From NCBI GenBank assembly GCA_035505375.1, contig DATJQV010000069.1, positions 1 to 64,000 of the forward strand: DNA of 64,000 nt, written 5' to 3'. The position numbers were made by a program, and so were the translations under genes. Below, piece by piece: positions 25,880 to 41,120 of this stretch. This stretch comes from a bacterium. Its GTDB lineage: Bacteria > Hydrothermota > Tepidihabitantia > Tepidihabitantales > Tepidihabitantaceae. Each line of letters starts with the position of its first letter. The first letter of the stretch is position 1. A model generated the notes under the pieces. It saw only the letters and a list, made by a program, of their open reading frames with translations. It made no database searches and had not been told where the DNA came from.

Positions 25880-25959
25880 GGACGCGGAAATAGTTGACCA
25901 CGGATGAACACGTATGTGCACCGTTGCGATACTTGGAATACGTCGGGACAAAAGAAAAA

Positions 25960-26034
25960 GAGAGTCACGAGAAGCTCAGTGTCGCGGCAATGTTTTGACC
26001 GAGCCGGTTTATGATACCGAACTTTCGTGCTCTC
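25960..26034. repeat. Dispersed 75-bp inverted-repeat element, copy 1
   Basis: Arms GAGAGTCACGAGAAGCTC and its partner ending CGTGCTCTC pair over about 23 positions; where the sequence differs from other copies (AAGCTCAGTGTC against AAGTTCGGTATC) the pairing is kept by G-T or compensating bases. Loop about 30 bases. Related copies: 35884-35956, 36930-37005, 38652-38727. Confidence 0.75.
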
Positions 26035-26126
26035 GAATATCTTAGACACACCAAGGCTCAAAAGGTTGCGCTGATTCTAGCGCCACCGTATTCGGGCCCC
26101 AGCCACAATATGGCCAAGTTCATATA

Positions 26127-33488: not shown

Positions 33489-35678
33489 ATGCCACAAAGA
33501 TTAACTGTATTGCTATGCTGCTGGGTTCTGCTCGGAGCCGCGACTGCCCGGGCCGAGTTACACCGCCTCGGGTACATCCACGAGGACCTCGACAAGCTCG
33601 CGCCTGAGCATCAGGTCAAGAGCATACCGGTGCCGCTGGGTGCTGCGTCTCACTATAGCCAGAAGGTGGTGGACCTGACCAGCCAGATGCCGCCGGTCGG
33701 AGACCAGCAGCAGCAGGGCTCCTGCGCCTGCTGGTCCTGCGTTTACTATCACCGGACCCAGATCGAGTACCACGAACGGCACTGGGACCTGACCGACCCG
33801 AATCACCAGTTCAGCCCGGCTTTCGTCTACAACCAGGTCAACGGCGGCGGCGACAACGGCTCGGGTTTCAACAACATCCTGCCGCTCATCTGCGACCAGG
33901 GAGTGTCGAGCCTGGTCGACTGCCCCTACAATGACGGCGACTGCACCAGTTGGCCCTCGGAGTCGGCGTACTCGCACGCACTTCCTTTCCGCACCAAGAC
34001 GTGGGCATGGTTCCACACCTACGACACGACCGGCATCAACATGATAAAGCAACTGCTCGTCAACGGCAGCACCGCGTCCCTCGCCATCGGTGTCTGGGGC
34101 AACTTCGACAACATCGCCTCGTACAACTACATGTACTGCGCGTCCGACCGGGAGGGCACGAACCGGGGCGGACACATGATAACGTTTGTCGGCTACAACG
34201 ATACGCTGCCGACGCACGACGGGACCGGCGCGTTCAGGATGGTCAACTCCTGGGGCACGGGCTGGGGTCAGGCCGGCTACTTCTGGATGTCCTACCAGGC
34301 GGTTATGGACAGCTTCCTCAGCGGACGGGCGGTCGGCTACCTGACCGACACGGTCGGGTACGTACCGAAGCTGGTTGCGCGCGTTCAGATCAACTACCCG
34401 GCCCGCGACAAGGTGGGGCTCAAGTACACCATCGGCACCCGCACGAATCCCCTCTGGACGAAGACGTTCCGCAAGTGGCGCAACGCCAAGACCGACCATC
34501 CGTTCCCGGCCAATAACATGGTATTCGACCTCACCGACGGCTCATCGTACATCAAGAACGGCCAGACCGACTCCATCTACTTCATCGCGTGGGATTCCAC
34601 CGGGTACGGCGACTCCGGCGCCGTTGCCAGCTCCTCGGTTCAGTACCTTGACTGGGGCACAATCTTCAACTCGGGATCTACTCCTCTCACCATCTGGGAT
34701 GACGGGAGAGTGCTGGCCGCCGGCCACCGAATCTGGGAGACCAACAAGGACGTTACTGCCGACTGGATATTCTCGCCGACCGGGATCGTCGAGCCGGAAA
34801 GCTCCTACGTGCCGCGAGTCGAGGTCCGGAACAACGGCCAGAACGCCGTCACGTTCCCGGTCCGGCTCACCATCAGCACCGGCTACGCGGACACGGTGCA
34901 GGTGACGAACCTCGCGCACGGCCAGGCGGATACGATTGCCTTCTTACCCTGGGTGGTTCCTCCGCGCTGCACCGCCGCGGTCCGGTGCTCGACCGCTCTT
35001 ACCGGGGACGAGAACCATCAGAATGACCTGACCACCGCGGTGGCCTGGGCCAGATACCACGACGTGGGCGTGACCCGGATCATCTCGCCCGGCGACACGG
35101 TCGACTCGGGATTCGTCGTCCATCCTCAAATCCAGGTCTGGAACTACGGCACGCAGACCGAGGCCGTCATGGCGACGTTCCGCATTCCCGACGATGGCTA
35201 CTCGCGTGTCTCGCAGGTATCGATTCCCTCTCATCAGGGAATACCAATCACCTTCGCCACCTGGGTTCCCAAACTCGTCGGCAGCCACATGGCCCGGTGC
35301 TCGCTGTCCATGGCCGGCGACGCCGTACCTGCCAACGACACGATGAGCCGCCAGGTTGACGTGCAGGTCGCGGGCATAGCCGAGGGGAAATCGGCGCCGA
35401 ACGGATTCCGGCTCGAACTCCCGCGCCCGAGCGTCCTCAGCCGGAACGTGGCCGTTGCCTTTGCGCTCCCGCGTCCGGCCGACGTCTCGCTGGCCCTCTA
35501 TGACGCGACCGGTGCGCTGGTCCGCCAGCTCCGCCGCGGCAACACTGCCGCCGGACAATACCGGCTGAACTGGGACGGCACCGACGACGAAGGACGCCTG
35601 GTTCCGGCCGGCGTCTACTACTGCCGTCTCAAAGCCGACGACCTCCTCTCCACGCAGAAACTCGTCGTACGGCGGTAA
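33489..35678 (+). CDS. Secreted C1 (papain-family) cysteine protease with sorting tail
   Basis: 729 residues. Signal peptide ends near ATARA. The catalytic site PPVGDQQQQGSCACWSCVYY (oxyanion Gln, Cys in about residue 75-80), the histidine loop NRGGHMITFVGYND and MVNSWGTGWGQAGYFWMSY are complete, so it should be active. After the protease (about 45-290) come CARDB-like repeats (about 420-620) and a FlgD-like module ending PAGVYYCRL...QKLVVRR. Exported and probably surface-bound or released to degrade proteins. AAGGAG lies 5 bases before the ATG. A strong terminator follows. Confidence 0.85.
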   Translation: MPQRLTVLLCCWVLLGAATARAELHRLGYIHEDLDKLAPEHQVKSIPVPLGAASHYSQKVVDLTSQMPPVGDQQQQGSCACWSCVYYHRTQIEYHERHWDLTDPNHQFSPAFVYNQVNGGGDNGSGFNNILPLICDQGVSSLVDCPYNDGDCTSWPSESAYSHALPFRTKTWAWFHTYDTTGINMIKQLLVNGSTASLAIGVWGNFDNIASYNYMYCASDREGTNRGGHMITFVGYNDTLPTHDGTGAFRMVNSWGTGWGQAGYFWMSYQAVMDSFLSGRAVGYLTDTVGYVPKLVARVQINYPARDKVGLKYTIGTRTNPLWTKTFRKWRNAKTDHPFPANNMVFDLTDGSSYIKNGQTDSIYFIAWDSTGYGDSGAVASSSVQYLDWGTIFNSGSTPLTIWDDGRVLAAGHRIWETNKDVTADWIFSPTGIVEPESSYVPRVEVRNNGQNAVTFPVRLTISTGYADTVQVTNLAHGQADTIAFLPWVVPPRCTAAVRCSTALTGDENHQNDLTTAVAWARYHDVGVTRIISPGDTVDSGFVVHPQIQVWNYGTQTEAVMATFRIPDDGYSRVSQVSIPSHQGIPITFATWVPKLVGSHMARCSLSMAGDAVPANDTMSRQVDVQVAGIAEGKSAPNGFRLELPRPSVLSRNVAVAFALPRPADVSLALYDATGALVRQLRRGNTAAGQYRLNWDGTDDEGRLVPAGVYYCRLKADDLLSTQKLVVRR

Positions 35679-35729: not shown

Positions 35730-35749
35730 CAAGCCCGCGCTTCGCCGCG

Positions 35750-35853
35750 GCCAATCTGGAATCTACAATCGAGAATCTGCAATGGGATGGCTGGTCGGTT
35801 CGCGGCGCAGCCGCGGCCAATCTAAAATCTGCAATCCAGAATCTAAAATGGAT
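35750..35853. repeat. Two 7-bp arrays (AATCNNN family) 65 bp apart
   Basis: AATCTGG/AATCTAC/AATCGAG/AATCTGC at 35757-35788 and AATCTAA/AATCTGC/AATCCAG/AATCTAA at 35819-35850, each preceded by CCGCGGCC. This marks the left edge of the toxin-antitoxin island. Confidence 0.8.
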
Positions 35854-35883
35854 TGATGGGCGGGGCGGCAGGCCTCAACAAAA

Positions 35884-35956
35884 GAGAGTCACGATCAGTT
35901 CAGTATCTCGGCATTAACAGATTGCCGGTTAAGTGATACCGAACTACCGTGCTCTC
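35884..35956. repeat. Dispersed inverted-repeat element, copy 2
   Basis: 73 bp. The best-paired copy: the arm GAGAGTCACGATCAGTTCAG matches the reverse complement of the other end with two 1-base bulges and few mismatches. It is followed by the shared tail GTAAGACGC...GGTTCGCGGGCGGG. It lies just after the 3' end of the orphan cas6 gene. Confidence 0.8.
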
Positions 35957-36007
35957 AACATGTAAGACGCAGCCGGCGGGCAAATGGTTCGCGGGCGGGC
36001 AGGGATT

Positions 36008-36715
36008 TCAATCCTCGGGAAACCAGACTCCGGTGCTGTGCCGCCTCGGCGCGGAACGACCGACTGCGCCCCGCTCGGGCACGAACACACCGCAACCCAT
36101 GCGGCGGCCGGGCCCTACCCCAAGCTCCTGCAGCCTCAGCGACTCCTCCGGAGATAGCCCCCGCGCCAGCACTTCCCAGCCGACAACCGCAGTCTCGCCG
36201 ATCTGCCGGAAGCGCCGCACATAAGGGCAGCCTGAGGCGGGGCGTCCGGTGTCGGACGGGCCTGCGTGCTCATTCACCTGCTTCCGGCGCAGGGCCGGAA
36301 CCGCCCTGATGCCCAGGGCGCGGAACTGAGCGGCCAGCCACTCTTCCACCTCATCGCTGTAGCGGCACTGCTCGACGACCACGAAAGCGCTCACGAGACT
36401 CGCGGCCGGTCTCAATTCGGACCGGGTCGGCTGGCCGAGTATCAGCGTCGCGCTGCCGAACACGAGACACTGACCGGCCAGCGGCTCAAGCATCGGCAAA
36501 GCCTCGGCCCCAACGCGGAACGTGAGGCGGGAACCTGGCGTCAGGTCGAGAAAGCCGCGGTGAGGGTTGCCCTGAATCGGGACAATCGCCAATCCCACCT
36601 GGGCCTCCGCTGCCACCCACGGCACGGCGCGCGCCACAGCCCGGTACACGATATAACCATTATCGACGGGAAGCGGCGTCCCGCGGACGGGGAAACTCAG
36701 TTCGACTACCGGCAT
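36008..36715 (-). CDS. cas6: Orphan Cas6 (Cmx6/MYXAN-type) CRISPR RNA endonuclease
   Basis: 235 residues. The layout follows Cas6 of the MYXAN subtype: MPVVELSFPVRGTPLPVDNGY, a GSRLTFRV strand, LEPLAGQCLVFGSATLILGQP, then VVGWEVLARGLSPEESLRLQ and the C-terminal glycine-rich RNA-binding loop ELGVGPGRRMGCGVFVP. Cas6 cuts CRISPR precursor RNA at repeat hairpins. No other cas gene and no CRISPR array lies in this 64 kb. A 20-residue stretch around SDTGRPASGCPYVRR looks inserted. Copies of a 73-76 bp hairpin element flank the gene on both sides (35884-35956 and 36930-37005). It may serve a distant array in trans or process another RNA. Confidence 0.7.
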   Translation of the reverse strand: MPVVELSFPVRGTPLPVDNGYIVYRAVARAVPWVAAEAQVGLAIVPIQGNPHRGFLDLTPGSRLTFRVGAEALPMLEPLAGQCLVFGSATLILGQPTRSELRPAASLVSAFVVVEQCRYSDEVEEWLAAQFRALGIRAVPALRRKQVNEHAGPSDTGRPASGCPYVRRFRQIGETAVVGWEVLARGLSPEESLRLQELGVGPGRRMGCGVFVPERGAVGRSAPRRHSTGVWFPED

Positions 36716-36873
36716 AGCTCATTATGGGCCGGGCGGCCCGAGAGTCAATCCGGCGAGGGGGGTATCCGGTCAGCTCCCCACGCCGGGTGCGTCGAATGGG
36801 CGTCCGCGTGAGGAATAACCTGCGTGACCGGGATTAGCGGGCGTGGATGTCAACCGCGTGACTTGGGCTCTGC

Positions 36874-36904: not shown

Positions 36905-36929
36905 TTAGTTCCCGGCGGTTCCCAAAAAA

Positions 36930-37005
36930 GAGAGTCACGATCAACCCAGTATCACGACAATGTCTATGACCGAGCCGTTTAACGATACCGAGCTGCCGTG
37001 CTCTC
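36930..37005. repeat. Dispersed inverted-repeat element, copy 3
   Basis: 76 bp, with arms GAGAGTCACG and CGTGCTCTC. It is nearly identical to copy 4 over the whole length including the 3' tail AAACGGTTCGCGGGCGG. It lies between the cas6 start and the end of the HNH gene. Confidence 0.8.
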
Positions 37006-37076
37006 AATTAGTAAGACGCTGAGAGCGGACAAACGGTTCGCGGGCGGCATCGGGGGTCCGCTGTGCGATTTATGAA

Positions 37077-37799
37077 TCAGGACTCCTTCGACAGTATCCA
37101 GCAACCGGACTTCCCAGTCGCTACATGGACGAGCAGCTTCCCGTCCTTCATCCCGAACCGCCTGACCAGGGCTTTGACGCATCCGCGGGGAACCTGCTCA
37201 TACGTCTGTCCGCGCCGGCACACCCTCACCTTCGGCAGTCTCGCGTAGGCGCGTCGAATGGCCCGCACCTGGGCCGGGGTCAACATGCGAAGCTCGTCGG
37301 ACACTTTAGCCCGAGTCCCGTCCCGGAGAGCTCGCCACGCCGTATCGCGTCTCGTCGCCAGCTCCAGGTGCCGCGGGTTGCAGCACGGAGGACCGGCGAG
37401 CTTGTGGATGACCACCATTCCCTTGGGGATTGGCCCGTGCTCGCGTATGTACACCCGCCGGTGGACATAGCGGATGCCATGCCCGAAAAACCCGTAGCCT
37501 CTGACCTTGTGGCCCAACCAGGGCCAGCACTCGTCGTCACCACGCACGTCAACGAGTGCGACCAGCTTGTCGATGCCCCGGCACATTGCGGTGTAGAACG
37601 CGCGCTCCACTTTGATGGTGTAGCCGGGAACACTGGCCATCCTGGTGTTGACCGGCTTGTAGGGCAGTTGGGCCCTCAGTTGCCGGACACGCTCGCGCGA
37701 CACTCCGACTTTCCGGGCAAGTGCGGCTTCGTTGTAGCGGGATGCCTTCTCGCCCAACGCGAGTATCCGGTCGATAGCTAATGGTGCTTGTCTATTCAT
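37077..37799 (-). CDS. HNH endonuclease with N-terminal helix-turn-helix
   Basis: 240 residues. N-terminal resolvase-like HTH with AALARKVGVSRERVRQLRAQ (about 25-44). The HNH domain reads DDECWPWLGHKVRGYGFFG (the W-x-G...GYG opening of phage HNH enzymes), HRRVYIREHGPIPKGMVVIHK and CCNPRHLELATRRDTAWRA (about 88-155). It resembles free-standing homing or phage HNH nucleases rather than restriction enzymes. C-terminal half basic, with VRVCRRGQTYEQVPRGCVKALVRRF. It lies between two inverted-repeat elements (copies 3 and 4), so it may be mobile or part of a mobile cassette. Confidence 0.75.
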   Translation of the reverse strand: MNRQAPLAIDRILALGEKASRYNEAALARKVGVSRERVRQLRAQLPYKPVNTRMASVPGYTIKVERAFYTAMCRGIDKLVALVDVRGDDECWPWLGHKVRGYGFFGHGIRYVHRRVYIREHGPIPKGMVVIHKLAGPPCCNPRHLELATRRDTAWRALRDGTRAKVSDELRMLTPAQVRAIRRAYARLPKVRVCRRGQTYEQVPRGCVKALVRRFGMKDGKLLVHVATGKSGCWILSKES

Positions 37800-37915
37800 G
37801 CCTCGGCAGAAGCCGGTCCTTCCCCGTGTCTCGATCTTCCGTCAATAACGGGAAAGATCCGGTGTTATGCATGGCTGGATTCTAGGACTTGCGGGCAGGC
37901 ATGTCAAACCGAGGG

Positions 37916-37955
37916 ACAATCTGGAATCAGCAATCTACAATCTGAAATTGACCTG
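37916..37955. repeat. 7-bp period array (AATCTGG/AATCAGC family)
   Basis: Four units AATCTGG, AATCAGC, AATCTAC, AATCTGA between the HNH and RelE-type cassettes. Confidence 0.8.
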
Positions 37956-38031
37956 CTCCCTGTCCCTTCATTTTAGTGTACCGCGTGATGTGGGCTGTGC
38001 AAACTATGGACCAGGGACAAAGAAGGCGCCA

Positions 38032-38298
38032 TCAGCGCCTGCGGTAGATTTCGCGGCGGTGGCCGATGACGTGAACCAGCAGTATCTGGTCACCATCAAG
38101 CAGCTCGTAGATGACCCGATAGTCACCGACCCTCAACTTGTACAAACCGGCGAGGTCGCCGCCCAAGGCCTCCGGTCGGATTGTGCCGAGATTCGACGCC
38201 AGCCAGTTGATGCGTTGAACGATCCGACGCGCTTCAGGCCTATCCAGCCGCGCCAAGTCGCGGGCCGCGGCATCCAGGAGGCGAGCCCGGAACGCCAC
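38032..38298 (-). CDS. RelE/ParE-type toxin
   Basis: 88 residues with GTG start at 38298, two bases after the antitoxin stop. Fold markers: MAFRARLLDAAARDLARLD, LGGDLAGLYKLRVGDYRVIYEL and LLVHVIGHRREIYRR, the usual RelE/ParE pattern with basic C-terminus (R, Y, R near the end). Members cleave mRNA at the ribosome or poison gyrase. Second gene after the antitoxin. Confidence 0.85.
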   Translation of the reverse strand: MAFRARLLDAAARDLARLDRPEARRIVQRINWLASNLGTIRPEALGGDLAGLYKLRVGDYRVIYELLDGDQILLVHVIGHRREIYRRR

Positions 38299-38300
38299 GC

Positions 38301-38516
38301 CTAGTGCAGGCCGAGTCTCCGAGCAACGTCGTCGAGCGTCTCGCCTCGCTCGCCGCTCGCCACCTTGCGCCGTTGGCGCAGAAGCCGCGCATGAAGCGCC
38401 CGCTTGACGGTGAGTCCTTCATCTGGGTCACCGAGCAGCTCTATCAGCTTCTCCTCGACCGTCTCGCCAATCATCTCCCGAAGCTGCTCCTTCGTCATTC
38501 GCGCTACGCTACTCAT
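38301..38516 (-). CDS. Antitoxin of the RelE/ParE pair
   Basis: 71 residues; MTKEQLREMIGETVEEKLIELLGDPDEGL is the typical N-terminus of short antitoxins found before ParE/RelE toxins, and the C-terminal TLDDVARRLGLH would wrap the toxin. First gene of the operon, two bases from the toxin. Confidence 0.8.
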   Translation of the reverse strand: MSSVARMTKEQLREMIGETVEEKLIELLGDPDEGLTVKRALHARLLRQRRKVASGERGETLDDVARRLGLH

Positions 38517-38562
38517 CCATCATGATACCGGAGCAGCGCGCGCCGGTCAAGGTGGATGGCAG

Positions 38563-38602
38563 CGTCAATGTGCAATCGCCAATCCGGAATCAACAATGGG
38601 TT
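38563..38602. repeat. 7-bp period array (AATCNNN family)
   Basis: CAATGTG, CAATCGC, CAATCCG, GAATCAA, CAATGGG in register after the RelE cassette. Confidence 0.6.
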
Positions 38603-38651
38603 TCGCGGGCGGGCGGGATTCGGCGGCTATCCTTCAAGAGTCCGACAAAAA

Positions 38652-38727
38652 GACAGTCACGATCAACCCAGTATCACGACAATGTCTATGACCGAGCCGT
38701 TTAACGATACCGGAATGCCGTGCTCTC
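38652..38727. repeat. Dispersed inverted-repeat element, copy 4
   Basis: 76 bp; differs from copy 3 by a few bases (GACAGTCACG instead of GAGAGTCACG). It stands between the RelE and zeta-type cassettes. Confidence 0.8.
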
Positions 38728-38805
38728 AACTAACAAGATGCTGACCGCGGACAAACGGTTCGCGGGCGGGCGTGTCTGACTCGCGACCGTTCTCCGACTC
38801 GGAGT

Positions 38806-39378
38806 TTGACTTCCTCGCAGTGCTTGAATAAGCTCAAACCTGTGGCCATCGGTTCCAGAGCTCCAGGACAACGACGCTGCATCGTCATTGCGGGTCCGAA
38901 CGGTGCGGGCAAGACTACCTTTGCGCGCGAGTTTCTTCCGCGTGACGCCGGCATCGTACACTTTGCCAATGTAGACCTGATCGCTGCCGGCCTGTCGCCA
39001 CTGAGACCGGGCTTGGCCGCACTGGCGGCCGGGCGTCTGTATCTAGCCGAACTTGACCGGCTCGCCCGGGCCGGACTCGACTTCGCCTTCGAGACGACTC
39101 TCAGCGGTCTAGTGCTTGTGTCACGGCTCAGACACTGGAAGTCCGGCGGCTACCGCATCGAAATCATCTTTCTGCAACTGAGTAGCCCGCAGCTCGCAGT
39201 ACGCCGCGTCGCCGCCCGAGTTCGGCAGGGCGGCCATGACGTGCCCCGCGACGACATCGTCAGGCGCTTCGAGCGTGGCTGGCGCAACTTCTGTTCGGTC
39301 TATCGGCCGCTTGCCGATGCCTGGGCAGTCTATGACAACTCCGGGGACGCGCCCCGATTATTGGAGAGGGGACCGTGA
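38806..39378 (+). CDS. Zeta-toxin-like P-loop kinase
   Basis: 190 residues from TTG 38806 (TTG 38824 or GTG 38842 are also possible; no clear ribosome site). P-loop CIVIAGPNGAGKTTFAREFLP, then FANVDLIAAGLSPLRPG, DFAFETTLSGLVLVSRL, VRRVAARVRQGGHDVPRDDIVRRFERG, and WAVYDNSG. This is the COG4185 group, kinases related to zeta toxins that phosphorylate UDP-N-acetylglucosamine. The small gene overlapping its stop is the usual partner of this group. Confidence 0.85.
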   Translation: MTSSQCLNKLKPVAIGSRAPGQRRCIVIAGPNGAGKTTFAREFLPRDAGIVHFANVDLIAAGLSPLRPGLAALAAGRLYLAELDRLARAGLDFAFETTLSGLVLVSRLRHWKSGGYRIEIIFLQLSSPQLAVRRVAARVRQGGHDVPRDDIVRRFERGWRNFCSVYRPLADAWAVYDNSGDAPRLLERGP

Positions 39379-39536
39379 AGAACAAGAGCAAAAGCAGCGC
39401 ACAATCGAAGGAGTTCGCCATACGTGTAGGCCGCGCCCTGCGCCGAGCCGCTCGACAGGCCCGTCGCACCGCGCGCGCCTACGGCACGCCGCTCTACGTC
39501 TGGCGGAACGGCAAGGTAGTCGCCGAGAAACCCTGA
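39375..39536 (+). CDS. Small partner (likely antitoxin) of the zeta-type toxin
   Basis: 53 residues, starting GTG at 39375 with a GTGA overlap of the toxin stop; too short and with the wrong start codon for a normal gene search. The conserved part FAIRVGRALRRAARQARRTA then AYGTPLYVWRNGKVVAEKP is the pattern of small proteins found directly after COG4185 kinases in many bacteria. Its basic helix would contact the toxin or nucleic acid. Toxin-first order differs from most pairs in this island. Confidence 0.75.
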   Translation: MKNKSKSSAQSKEFAIRVGRALRRAARQARRTARAYGTPLYVWRNGKVVAEKP

Positions 39537-39622
39537 CCGGTTCCTCCTCGGTATCAACACAGCGCAGGCTCCGACGCTGACGGAAGGGCTTCGCTCCGGA
39601 AACTCGCGGCGAGGCCACAGCT

Positions 39623-39737
39623 AATCTGCAATCGACAATCTAGAATCTGCAATGCCTTGGGCCGGGATGTCAACCTCCCTCGGGGTCGGCCAATCCAAAA
39701 TCAGCAATCTAGAATCGTGAATTCCCTGGACGGGGCG
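39623..39737. repeat. 115-bp composite repeat, copy A
   Basis: [7-bp array]-ATGCCTTGGGCCGGGATGTC-(CTCGGG...)-[7-bp array]-CGTGAATTCCCTGGACGGGG. The same unit recurs at 41005-41120 and 41876-41990, each between toxin-antitoxin cassettes. Confidence 0.85.
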
Positions 39738-39739
39738 AG

Positions 39740-40237
39740 TTAGGCGGACGGGCGGCGAATCGGTTGACTGTGCCTGGCGGGCCAGGTCTTCAGCAGGTCC
39801 GGGTGCTGCGCGCGTAGCCAGTGAACCACCAGTTCGCGGACGCGAACCGCCAATTCGTGCATTTCCAGCGCCTCGCGCTCCGACACCGCGCCCGCGACCT
39901 CGTAATCGCTCACATGCCGCTTCTTCTTCATCCGCTGCAAGAGGTCCACGTCCCGCCCCGGCGCCTCGATCGTGTGGCGCAACGACTCAACGAGGCGGTA
40001 ATGGTGTCCCTTCTCGCTCGGCGACACGCGGAAGCCGGCAGCGGCCAGGGCTGCCTTTGCTGCCTGAAGAGCCGCATTGTACGCAATCGCCAACTTCCAG
40101 TCGTCGGACAGACCCGGGGTCTGGGCGGCCGCGATGTCGCGTTCGACCACGGACAACAGGTCGGCGATCTCCTCCGGACTGGTCTCGTGCCGCTGCAGCG
40201 AGCCGCTACTTACCCAGCCGTCTAAGGTCGTGCTCAT
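39740..40237 (-). CDS. HEPN-type protein, partner of HTH-MNT
   Basis: 165 residues, almost all helical. WKLAIAYNAALQAAKAALAAAG is the core helix of HEPN proteins (YNAALQAAKAAL resembles the YYAMFxAARALL motif), and YRLVESLRHTI follows. It starts inside the 3' end of the nucleotidyltransferase gene (32-base overlap), so the two are coupled. Likely the toxin or RNase partner; no R-x4-6-H motif is obvious. Confidence 0.7.
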   Translation of the reverse strand: MSTTLDGWVSSGSLQRHETSPEEIADLLSVVERDIAAAQTPGLSDDWKLAIAYNAALQAAKAALAAAGFRVSPSEKGHHYRLVESLRHTIEAPGRDVDLLQRMKKKRHVSDYEVAGAVSEREALEMHELAVRVRELVVHWLRAQHPDLLKTWPARHSQPIRRPSA

Positions 40238-40811
40238 TGCCGAATAGGAACAGCTTCTCGCGCCCCGTCACGCTGCGGACAAAGTGGTTGCCGGCAGCCA
40301 GCTTCCGGCGGAACTCCGCCGATGTGTACACGGTCGGGTTCACCTCCCGGCTAAGCCTGCGCTGTGCCGGAGCCAAAGTCTGCGACAACGCCGCGAACGA
40401 CGCATCGCCGACGACCAGCAGATCGACGTCGCTCGCGCGGCGTTCCTCGCCCCGTGCTACCGAGCCGTACACGAACGCCACGTCGATGTCGGCGGCCAGC
40501 GGCGCGAGCGCCTCGCGCAGGACGTCGGTGACCCCGGCCGTCTTCACAACCAGACTCTTGAGTTCGTTGAATATCGGACTCGCGGAATTGGCCTGAAAGT
40601 AGACCTGCCGACCTTGCTGCCTGCGCGTCACGATGCCCGCCTCGGCCAGTTGCGCGAGCTCGCGGTGCACGCCACTCGGGCTGAGACCGGTCTCGCGGAC
40701 GATCTGGCGCAGATGATATGCCTCGTCGGAGTGGCCGAACAATAGCGCCAGCACCCTCCGCCGAGCCACACCGAAGAGGACCTCACCCGGGCCGGCCGGC
40801 TCTGTTCTCAT
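40206..40811 (-). CDS. HTH-nucleotidyltransferase fusion (antitoxin/regulator)
   Basis: 201 residues from ATG 40811. An ArsR-like winged helix (HLRQIVRETGLSPSGVHRELAQLAEAGIV, about 30-60, quoted by its ends HLRQIVRETGL and AGIV) is fused to an MNT domain with FVYGSVARGEERRASDVDLL, which contains GSxARG and D-x-D. Longer readings from 40937 or 40832 run through the promoter and are rejected. The promoter overlaps a palindrome, consistent with autoregulation. C-terminus ends GNEHDLRRLGK. Confidence 0.75.
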   Translation of the reverse strand: MRTEPAGPGEVLFGVARRRVLALLFGHSDEAYHLRQIVRETGLSPSGVHRELAQLAEAGIVTRRQQGRQVYFQANSASPIFNELKSLVVKTAGVTDVLREALAPLAADIDVAFVYGSVARGEERRASDVDLLVVGDASFAALSQTLAPAQRRLSREVNPTVYTSAEFRRKLAAGNHFVRSVTGREKLFLFGNEHDLRRLGK

Positions 40812-40813
40812 AG

Positions 40814-40849
40814 TGCGAACAATTGTACGCATAAAGTGAACGCCGTCAA
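40814..40849 (-). promoter_or_regulatory. Promoter overlapped by an 18-bp palindromic operator
   Basis: -35 TTGACG (40844-40849), 16-base spacer, -10 TACAAT (40822-40827). TGCGAACAATTGTACGCA (40814-40831) is a nearly perfect palindrome over the -10 and start point, ending 2 bases before the ATG. The predicted transcript is leaderless or nearly so. The HTH of the gene itself is the obvious ligand. Confidence 0.65.
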
Positions 40850-40935
40850 ATCGAGGTGACCGCGGCTCCGGCCTTGAGCCACCAGCCGCTTGTGCTTGAG
40901 CTTGCGCTTGAACTGCGACGGTAGTCGCCGCCGCC

Positions 40936-41120
40936 AATCTACAATCGACAATCCAGAATCTGCAATGCCTTCGGCCGTTGTGTCAATCTGCCTCGGGTTC
41001 GGCCAATCTACAATCGAGAATCTAGAATCCGAAATGCCTTTGGCCGGGATGTCAACCTGCCTCGGGCTCGGCCAATCCAGAATCAGCAATCTAGAATCGT
41101 GAATTCCCTGGACGGGGCGG
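40936..41120. repeat. Composite repeat, copy B (one and a half units)
   Basis: Three 7-bp arrays at 40936, 41005 and about 41070, spaced by about 65-69 bases, separated by GCCTTYGGCCG...TGTCAA and TGCCTCGGG. From 41005 on it matches copies A and C. It lies between the HEPN/MNT and DUF4258 cassettes. Confidence 0.85.

What the first reader, a model, noticed from the sequence alone, without database searches (positions are those of the whole stretch)
36008..36715. Orphan Cas6 without array or other cas genes, flanked by hairpin elements
A Cmx6-type Cas6 lies alone between two hairpin-forming repeats. Cas6 recognises small hairpins, so the dispersed element (or transcripts of the 12/7-bp arrays) might be its substrate, i.e. 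an endonuclease repurposed for processing chromosomal repeat RNA.
Basis: inference. Interest (0 to 1): 0.8.

Follow-up and report, generated by a model that had tools for sequence, protein, structure and literature searches.

The report
Stand-alone Cas6 conserved without CRISPR
In one genus of uncultured WOR-3 bacteria, a duplicated copy of the CRISPR guide-RNA-cutting protein Cas6 lives on by itself, even in species where no CRISPR genes were found, and has lost residues its CRISPR relatives keep, so it probably does a different, RNA-related job that nobody has described.

Summary
The Cas6 gene (36008-36715, minus) is real, intact and isolated. The genome also has a separate type I-B/MYXAN locus with its own cas6 (40% identical) and an array, so this is a second, free-standing paralogue, not the missing cas6 of a local system. 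Orthologues (56-73%) occur in 5 of 6 species of this WOR-3 genus. In two of them the searches found no repeat, cas1, cas3, cas7, RAMP or second cas6. The orphans form one clade (support 100/100) inside WOR-3 CRISPR Cas6 on a long stem branch. They share a conserved promoter directly before the start codon and an invariant C-terminal TGVWFP, and evolve under purifying selection. They have lost a conserved His35, Arg111 and Lys116 (to Glu) and one glycine of the Gly-rich loop; the window copy has also lost His19. This points to an exapted Cas6-fold protein with an altered, perhaps dead, active site. The flanking hairpin element is real and occurs across the genus (20 copies, covarying), but it neighbours cas6 only in this genome and also occurs in the one species lacking the orphan. 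The proposed 'endonuclease processing this element' is therefore not supported; CRISPR-independent repurposing is. Substrate and function remain untested.

The parts
36008..36715 (-). orphan cas6/cmx6 paralogue, 235 aa, intact
   Evidence: Pfam/NCBIfam/PADLOC/PDB hits; orthologues in 4 other species; own clade
36721..36748 (-). conserved promoter TTGACT-N16-CATAAT ending about 5 nt before the ATG (suggests a leaderless mRNA)
   Evidence: same TTGAC[AT]-N16-CATAAT spacing at the same place in all five orthologues; promoter scan hit
35879..36001 (+). copy e1 of the 126-nt hairpin element; on the minus strand it follows the cas6 stop codon and ends in a U-run (terminator-like)
36925..37050 (+). 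copy e2 of the hairpin element, upstream of cas6 and 3' of the HNH gene
38647..38772 (+). copy e3 of the hairpin element (92% identical to e2)
25955..26080 (+). copy e0: the syntenic copy shared by the genus, 47 bp before a BaiN/HI0933-like FAD oxidoreductase gene
33489..35678 (+). C1-peptidase/FlgD-Ig protein gene, neighbour of the orphan cas6 in 3 of 5 species

Best explanation
A cas6 of the type I-B/MYXAN kind was duplicated before this WOR-3 genus radiated, left the CRISPR locus and became an independent single-gene unit with its own promoter. It then diverged quickly, lost a conserved His (His35; in this copy His19 as well), two invariant basic residues and part of the glycine-rich loop signature, gained a conserved C-terminal tail, and has since been kept by purifying selection, also in species where no CRISPR was found. 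Most likely it is a CRISPR-independent Cas6-fold protein that still binds some cellular RNA (Gly-rich loop, R67, R167 and Q196 are kept) but cleaves poorly or not at all, acting as a post-transcriptional regulator or RNA chaperone. Shown: paralogy, clade, conservation, CRISPR-independence at assembly level, residue losses. Inferred: loss of catalysis, retained RNA binding, regulatory role. The adjacent hairpin elements are a separate dispersed repeat and probably incidental.
For: Second cas6 at 40% in a complete effector operon. Orthologues at 73/58/57/56% in four other species of the genus. In G001 and G003 no CRISPR repeat, no cas7, no second cas6, no cas3 above cut-off, no cas1; no RAMP in the genus. 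Orphans are one clade, 100/100, inside WOR-3 Cas6, stem length 1.46. dN/dS below 1 in every comparison: G004/G005 0.19 (YN00) or 0.37 (NG86); G000/G003 0.06 or 0.21. Residues: His35 in 11/13 CRISPR-linked relatives, A/G in 5/5 orphans; Arg111 13/13 to A/P; Lys116 13/13 to E; Gly202 12/13 to P; His19 12/13, N in two orphans including this one. Invariant TGVWFP tail. Promoter conserved. Precedents read: S. solfataricus Cas6 lacks the canonical His and is described as chaperone-like, and a non-catalytic P. furiosus Cas6 paralogue exists (PMC3652601).
Against: Cas6 without a canonical His can be active (S. solfataricus, PMC3652601). An invariant new His52 in all orphans could serve catalysis. Three of five orphans keep His19. 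RNA binding is not demonstrated and no RNA partner was found. The catalytic residue of this Cas6 subfamily is not established: I place His35 by position only. The AlphaFold model is poor (pLDDT 54.5, four sequences), so the active site could not be inspected. The stem branch is long and only six species are available.
Confidence: 0.5

Rival explanations
1. Specialised cellular RNase: still a Cas6-type endonuclease, with a rebuilt active site (for example around the new invariant His52), that cuts a hairpin in cellular transcripts, possibly the dispersed 76-nt hairpin element in trans.
For: Element and orphan gene both occur across the genus; the element is a strong covarying hairpin; His52 is invariant in orphans and absent from CRISPR-linked relatives; in this genome the element follows the cas6 stop codon.
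Against: No element copy beside the orphan in the held stretches of any other species; G002 has the element without the orphan; the two invariant basic residues are lost, Lys116 with charge reversal.
Confidence: 0.2
2. Auxiliary or regulatory partner of the I-B/MYXAN CRISPR system: a second Cas6 working in trans on the same repeat, or a non-cutting competitor that damps crRNA production.
For: Three of the five orphan-bearing species also have the I-B locus and array; Cas6 supplied in trans is known (PMC12669027); the P. furiosus genome has a non-catalytic Cas6 paralogue (PMC3652601).
Against: Retained in G001 and G003, in which no CRISPR component was found; residues invariant in CRISPR-linked Cas6 are replaced.
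Confidence: 0.13
3. Relic of a lost CRISPR locus, or a passenger gene without function.
For: Isolated gene; degenerate active site; neighbourhood differs between species apart from the C1-peptidase.
Against: Full-length intact frames in five species, dN/dS below 1, conserved promoter and tail.
Confidence: 0.06
4. Mobile gene-cassette cargo: the direct copies of the element act as recombination sites and the orphan is one cassette of an array.
For: Three direct copies delimit about 1.05-kb and 1.72-kb intervals with single genes or a toxin-antitoxin pair in this window.
Against: The element shows no attC-type core at its ends (by inspection); no recombinase gene was identified nearby (not searched systematically); orthologues elsewhere lack flanking elements in the held stretches; the element has a fixed syntenic copy in all six genomes; C1-peptidase linkage in 3/5 species argues for ordinary inheritance.
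Confidence: 0.06

Closest known systems
Cas6/Cmx6 of type I-B (MYXAN) CRISPR-Cas (TIGR02807, PF09559; PDB 8fcj; Synechocystis 6714 I-B Cascade)
   Same: Same family, same length range, Gly-rich loop, secondary-structure order compatible with the Cas6 fold as far as the weak model shows
   Different: Not linked to cas genes or array; His35, Arg111, Lys116 and a Gly-loop glycine lost; extra C-terminal tail; kept in genomes where no CRISPR was found
Non-catalytic Cas6 paralogue of Pyrococcus furiosus (Cas6nc, 3UFC) and His-less S. solfataricus Cas6 (PMC3652601)
   Same: Cas6 without the canonical catalytic histidine; RNA-chaperone-like role proposed
   Different: Those occur in organisms with CRISPR systems; here a bacterial I-B-type lineage, conserved also where no CRISPR was found
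Cas6 genes detached from cas loci that act in trans (PMC3575380, PMC12669027)
   Same: Single cas6 away from cas operons
   Different: Those serve CRISPR arrays of the same cell; no array or other cas gene was found in two of the species here
CRISPR exaptations such as CreTA or the array-less subtype I-E module of Streptomyces (PMC8730458, PMC9458426)
   Same: Cas parts reused outside adaptive immunity
   Different: Those use several effector subunits; here Cas6 alone

Membership tests
Cas6/Cmx6 protein family | Match to the curated family model above its cut-off | tested here: met
   TIGR02807 141.6 vs 98.85 bits; PF09559 136 vs 26.7
Cas6/Cmx6 protein family | Glycine-rich loop before the last strand | tested here: met
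   GVGPGRRMGCGVF, but Gly202 is replaced by Pro in all orphans
Cas6/Cmx6 protein family | Conserved candidate catalytic histidines (His19, His35) | tested here: not met
   N19 and A35 in the window copy; His35 absent in 5/5 orphans. Which residue is catalytic in this subfamily is not established, so this lowers 'active Cas6 enzyme', not 'Cas6 family member'
Cas6/Cmx6 protein family | Cuts or binds CRISPR repeat hairpin RNA | not testable with these tools
   needs protein and RNA
[quoted passage not shown]
   isolated gene; no array in the window; the genome's I-B locus has its own cas6
[quoted passage not shown]
   present in G001 and G003 without repeat, cas1, cas3, cas7 or second cas6; draft assemblies 95-97% complete
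Non-catalytic Cas6 paralogue (Cas6nc-like) | Canonical catalytic His missing, fold kept | tested here: inconclusive
   His losses shown; structure model too weak; activity untested
Integron gene cassette with attC | attC core sites (RYYYAAC/GTTRRRY) at both ends of the hairpin | tested here: not met
   ends are GAGAGTCACG/CGTGCTCTC; judged by inspection
Known RNA family (for the hairpin element) | Match to an Rfam model | tested here: not met
   no gathering-level hit in the window

The most novel reading that the evidence does not exclude
A Cas6 family member has been domesticated as a CRISPR-independent cellular RNA-binding protein, a lineage-wide exaptation of a crRNA-maturation enzyme with a rebuilt RNA-contact surface and a non-canonical or dead active site.
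Probability: 0.45. Interest if true: 0.7.

Novelty: new variant of a known kind. Interest (0 to 1): 0.5.

Why it matters
Reuse of CRISPR parts is usually seen with whole effector modules. A Cas6 that outlives CRISPR in its lineage would show that the crRNA-processing subunit alone can be given a cellular RNA job, and it offers a small, testable protein set (five orthologues, paired with CRISPR-linked paralogues from the same genomes) to learn which residues make a Cas6 a CRISPR enzyme.

Tried and rejected
Missing cas6 of a local or distant type I system: rejected, the C25 locus has its own. Type III client in the genus: no RAMP match. Phage or viral origin: no hit in phages or viral contigs. 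Cas6-element linkage: only in this genome. First folding of the wrong 73-nt stretch (D2 repeat) gave weak z-scores; the true hairpin lies at element columns 6-81. AlphaFold on four orthologues: pLDDT 54.5, not used for residue geometry, and no fold search was run on it. CRISPR-repeat-like hairpin near the orphan: none with up to 5 mismatches. Vertical versus horizontal spread inside the genus: two helicase markers give partly different trees from the orphan tree for G003, unresolved. A first Cas6 alignment was wrong because minus-strand loci had not been reverse-complemented; redone.

Full report
Observation. The frame 36008-36715 (minus) is an intact Cas6 of the Cmx6/MYXAN kind, above curated cut-offs, with PADLOC Cas6 models and one solved relative, the Cas6 of a type I-B system (8fcj, 3e-23). 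Neighbours are a C1-peptidase/FlgD-Ig protein, an HNH endonuclease, a ParE-type pair and a zeta-toxin-like kinase, plus a HEPN domain and a nucleotidyltransferase further on. A crude scan found no CRISPR array in the window.

The rest of the genome. The assembly (3.6 Mb, 90 contigs) has a second Cas6, 40% identical, on contig C25. It belongs to an operon cas6-cas3-cas8a1-cas7-cas5 followed by an array of about 14 units with the 36-nt repeat GTGACGAACCCTCTGATGCCGAAAGGCGTTGAGCAC. Cas1 is absent from the genome.

Conservation. In 100 relatives, Cas6 matches fall into two groups: four orthologues of the window gene at 73, 58, 57 and 56% in the same genus, and matches at about 37-42% that are, where checked, linked to CRISPR. 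A phylum-wide search of 147 genomes with TIGR02807 finds ten proteins in seven genomes and adds no further orphan. Named records place the genus in candidate division WOR-3. Phage and viral collections have no relative. G001 and G003 carry the orphan but no repeat, no cas7, no second cas6, no cas3 above cut-off and no cas1. No RAMP occurs in the genus. These assemblies are 95% and 97% complete, so absence of every component is credible but not proven.

Evolution. The orphans form one clade (100/100) nested in WOR-3 CRISPR-linked Cas6 (95/91 for the grouping with the same family's CRISPR Cas6) on a stem of 1.46 changes per site. All pairwise dN/dS values are below 1. The gene unit includes a promoter TTGAC[AT]-N16-CATAAT ending about 5 nt before the start codon in all five species; conserved DNA starts at about the promoter and stops at the gene's end. 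The C1-peptidase is the neighbour in G000, G005 and G001 although each genome has only about 3-7 such genes, which suggests an ancestral location. Two helicase markers do not agree with the orphan tree on the place of G003, so exchange inside the genus is possible.

Residues. Against 13 relatives (those checked lie in cas operons), the orphans lost His35 (11/13, A or G in all five), Arg111 (13/13, to A or P), Lys116 (13/13, to E), Gly202 (12/13, to P), and, in this copy and G003, His19 (12/13, to N). They gained an invariant His52 and a TGVWFP tail. In P. furiosus, H. volcanii and M. maripaludis the essential His lies at about positions 40-46 (PMC3652601, PMC3945376), which by position fits His35; Makarova et al. 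place the motif right after the first strand (PMC3150331), which fits His19. The window protein has neither. Some Cas6 without this His are active (PMC3652601), so inactivity is likely but not shown. The AlphaFold model was too weak to decide.

The hairpin element. It is real: four copies on this contig, a 76-nt hairpin plus a less conserved 3' part, stronger on the minus strand, followed there by a U-run. A covariance model finds it in all six genomes, 2-7 copies each as a lower bound because not all candidates were scored. On 20 copies, 13 pairs show two-sided changes, 0/500 shuffles reaching this (the alignment was fitted to the structure, so this leans in its favour). One copy per genome is syntenic: it follows a lipoprotein-like gene (in G000 the upstream frame is degraded) and lies 42-55 bp before a BaiN/HI0933-like oxidoreductase gene (this gene name is from its sequence by inspection, not a family search). 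No copy lies in the held stretch around the orphan gene in another species. In this genome e1 lies after the cas6 stop codon in sense orientation and looks like a terminator.

Mechanism. I judge most likely a CRISPR-independent Cas6-fold RNA-binding protein with little or no cleavage (0.5). Rivals are a re-specialised RNase (0.2), a CRISPR partner or damper (0.13), a cassette cargo (0.06) and a relic (0.06). Duplication, clade, conservation, CRISPR-independence at draft level and residue losses are shown; RNA binding, loss of cleavage and regulatory role are inferred.

Novelty. Detached cas6 genes and non-catalytic Cas6 are known (PMC3575380, PMC3652601). A conserved Cas6 clade kept where CRISPR was not found was not met in the open-access papers searched, a limited search. 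I rate it a new variant of a known kind.

Noticed in passing
window 25955-26080, 35879-36001, 36925-37050, 38647-38772; loci L083-L097: Genus-wide dispersed 126-nt covarying hairpin element without Rfam match; one copy per genome is syntenic before a BaiN/HI0933-like FAD oxidoreductase gene. Could be a REP/MITE-like repeat or a leader/terminator element.
   Followed up: partly
L003 9608-16600 (G000:C25): Type I-B/MYXAN locus with full effector genes and array but no cas1 anywhere in the genome; G004 and G005 have Cas1-containing frames of 552 and 594 aa in their loci, the size of a Cas4-Cas1 fusion.
   Followed up: partly
window 37077-40937: Cluster of HNH endonuclease, ParE-type toxin pair, zeta-toxin-like kinase without obvious partner, HEPN and HTH-nucleotidyltransferase genes around the orphan cas6.
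   Followed up: partly
L017 9027-9401: In G003 the orphan cas6 lies next to a PIN-domain (VapC-like) gene.
   Followed up: no
window 35744-35851, 39614-39724, 40933-41098 and elsewhere: Degenerate 7-bp repeat runs (AATCTNN) between genes, recurring in intergenic regions.
   Followed up: no
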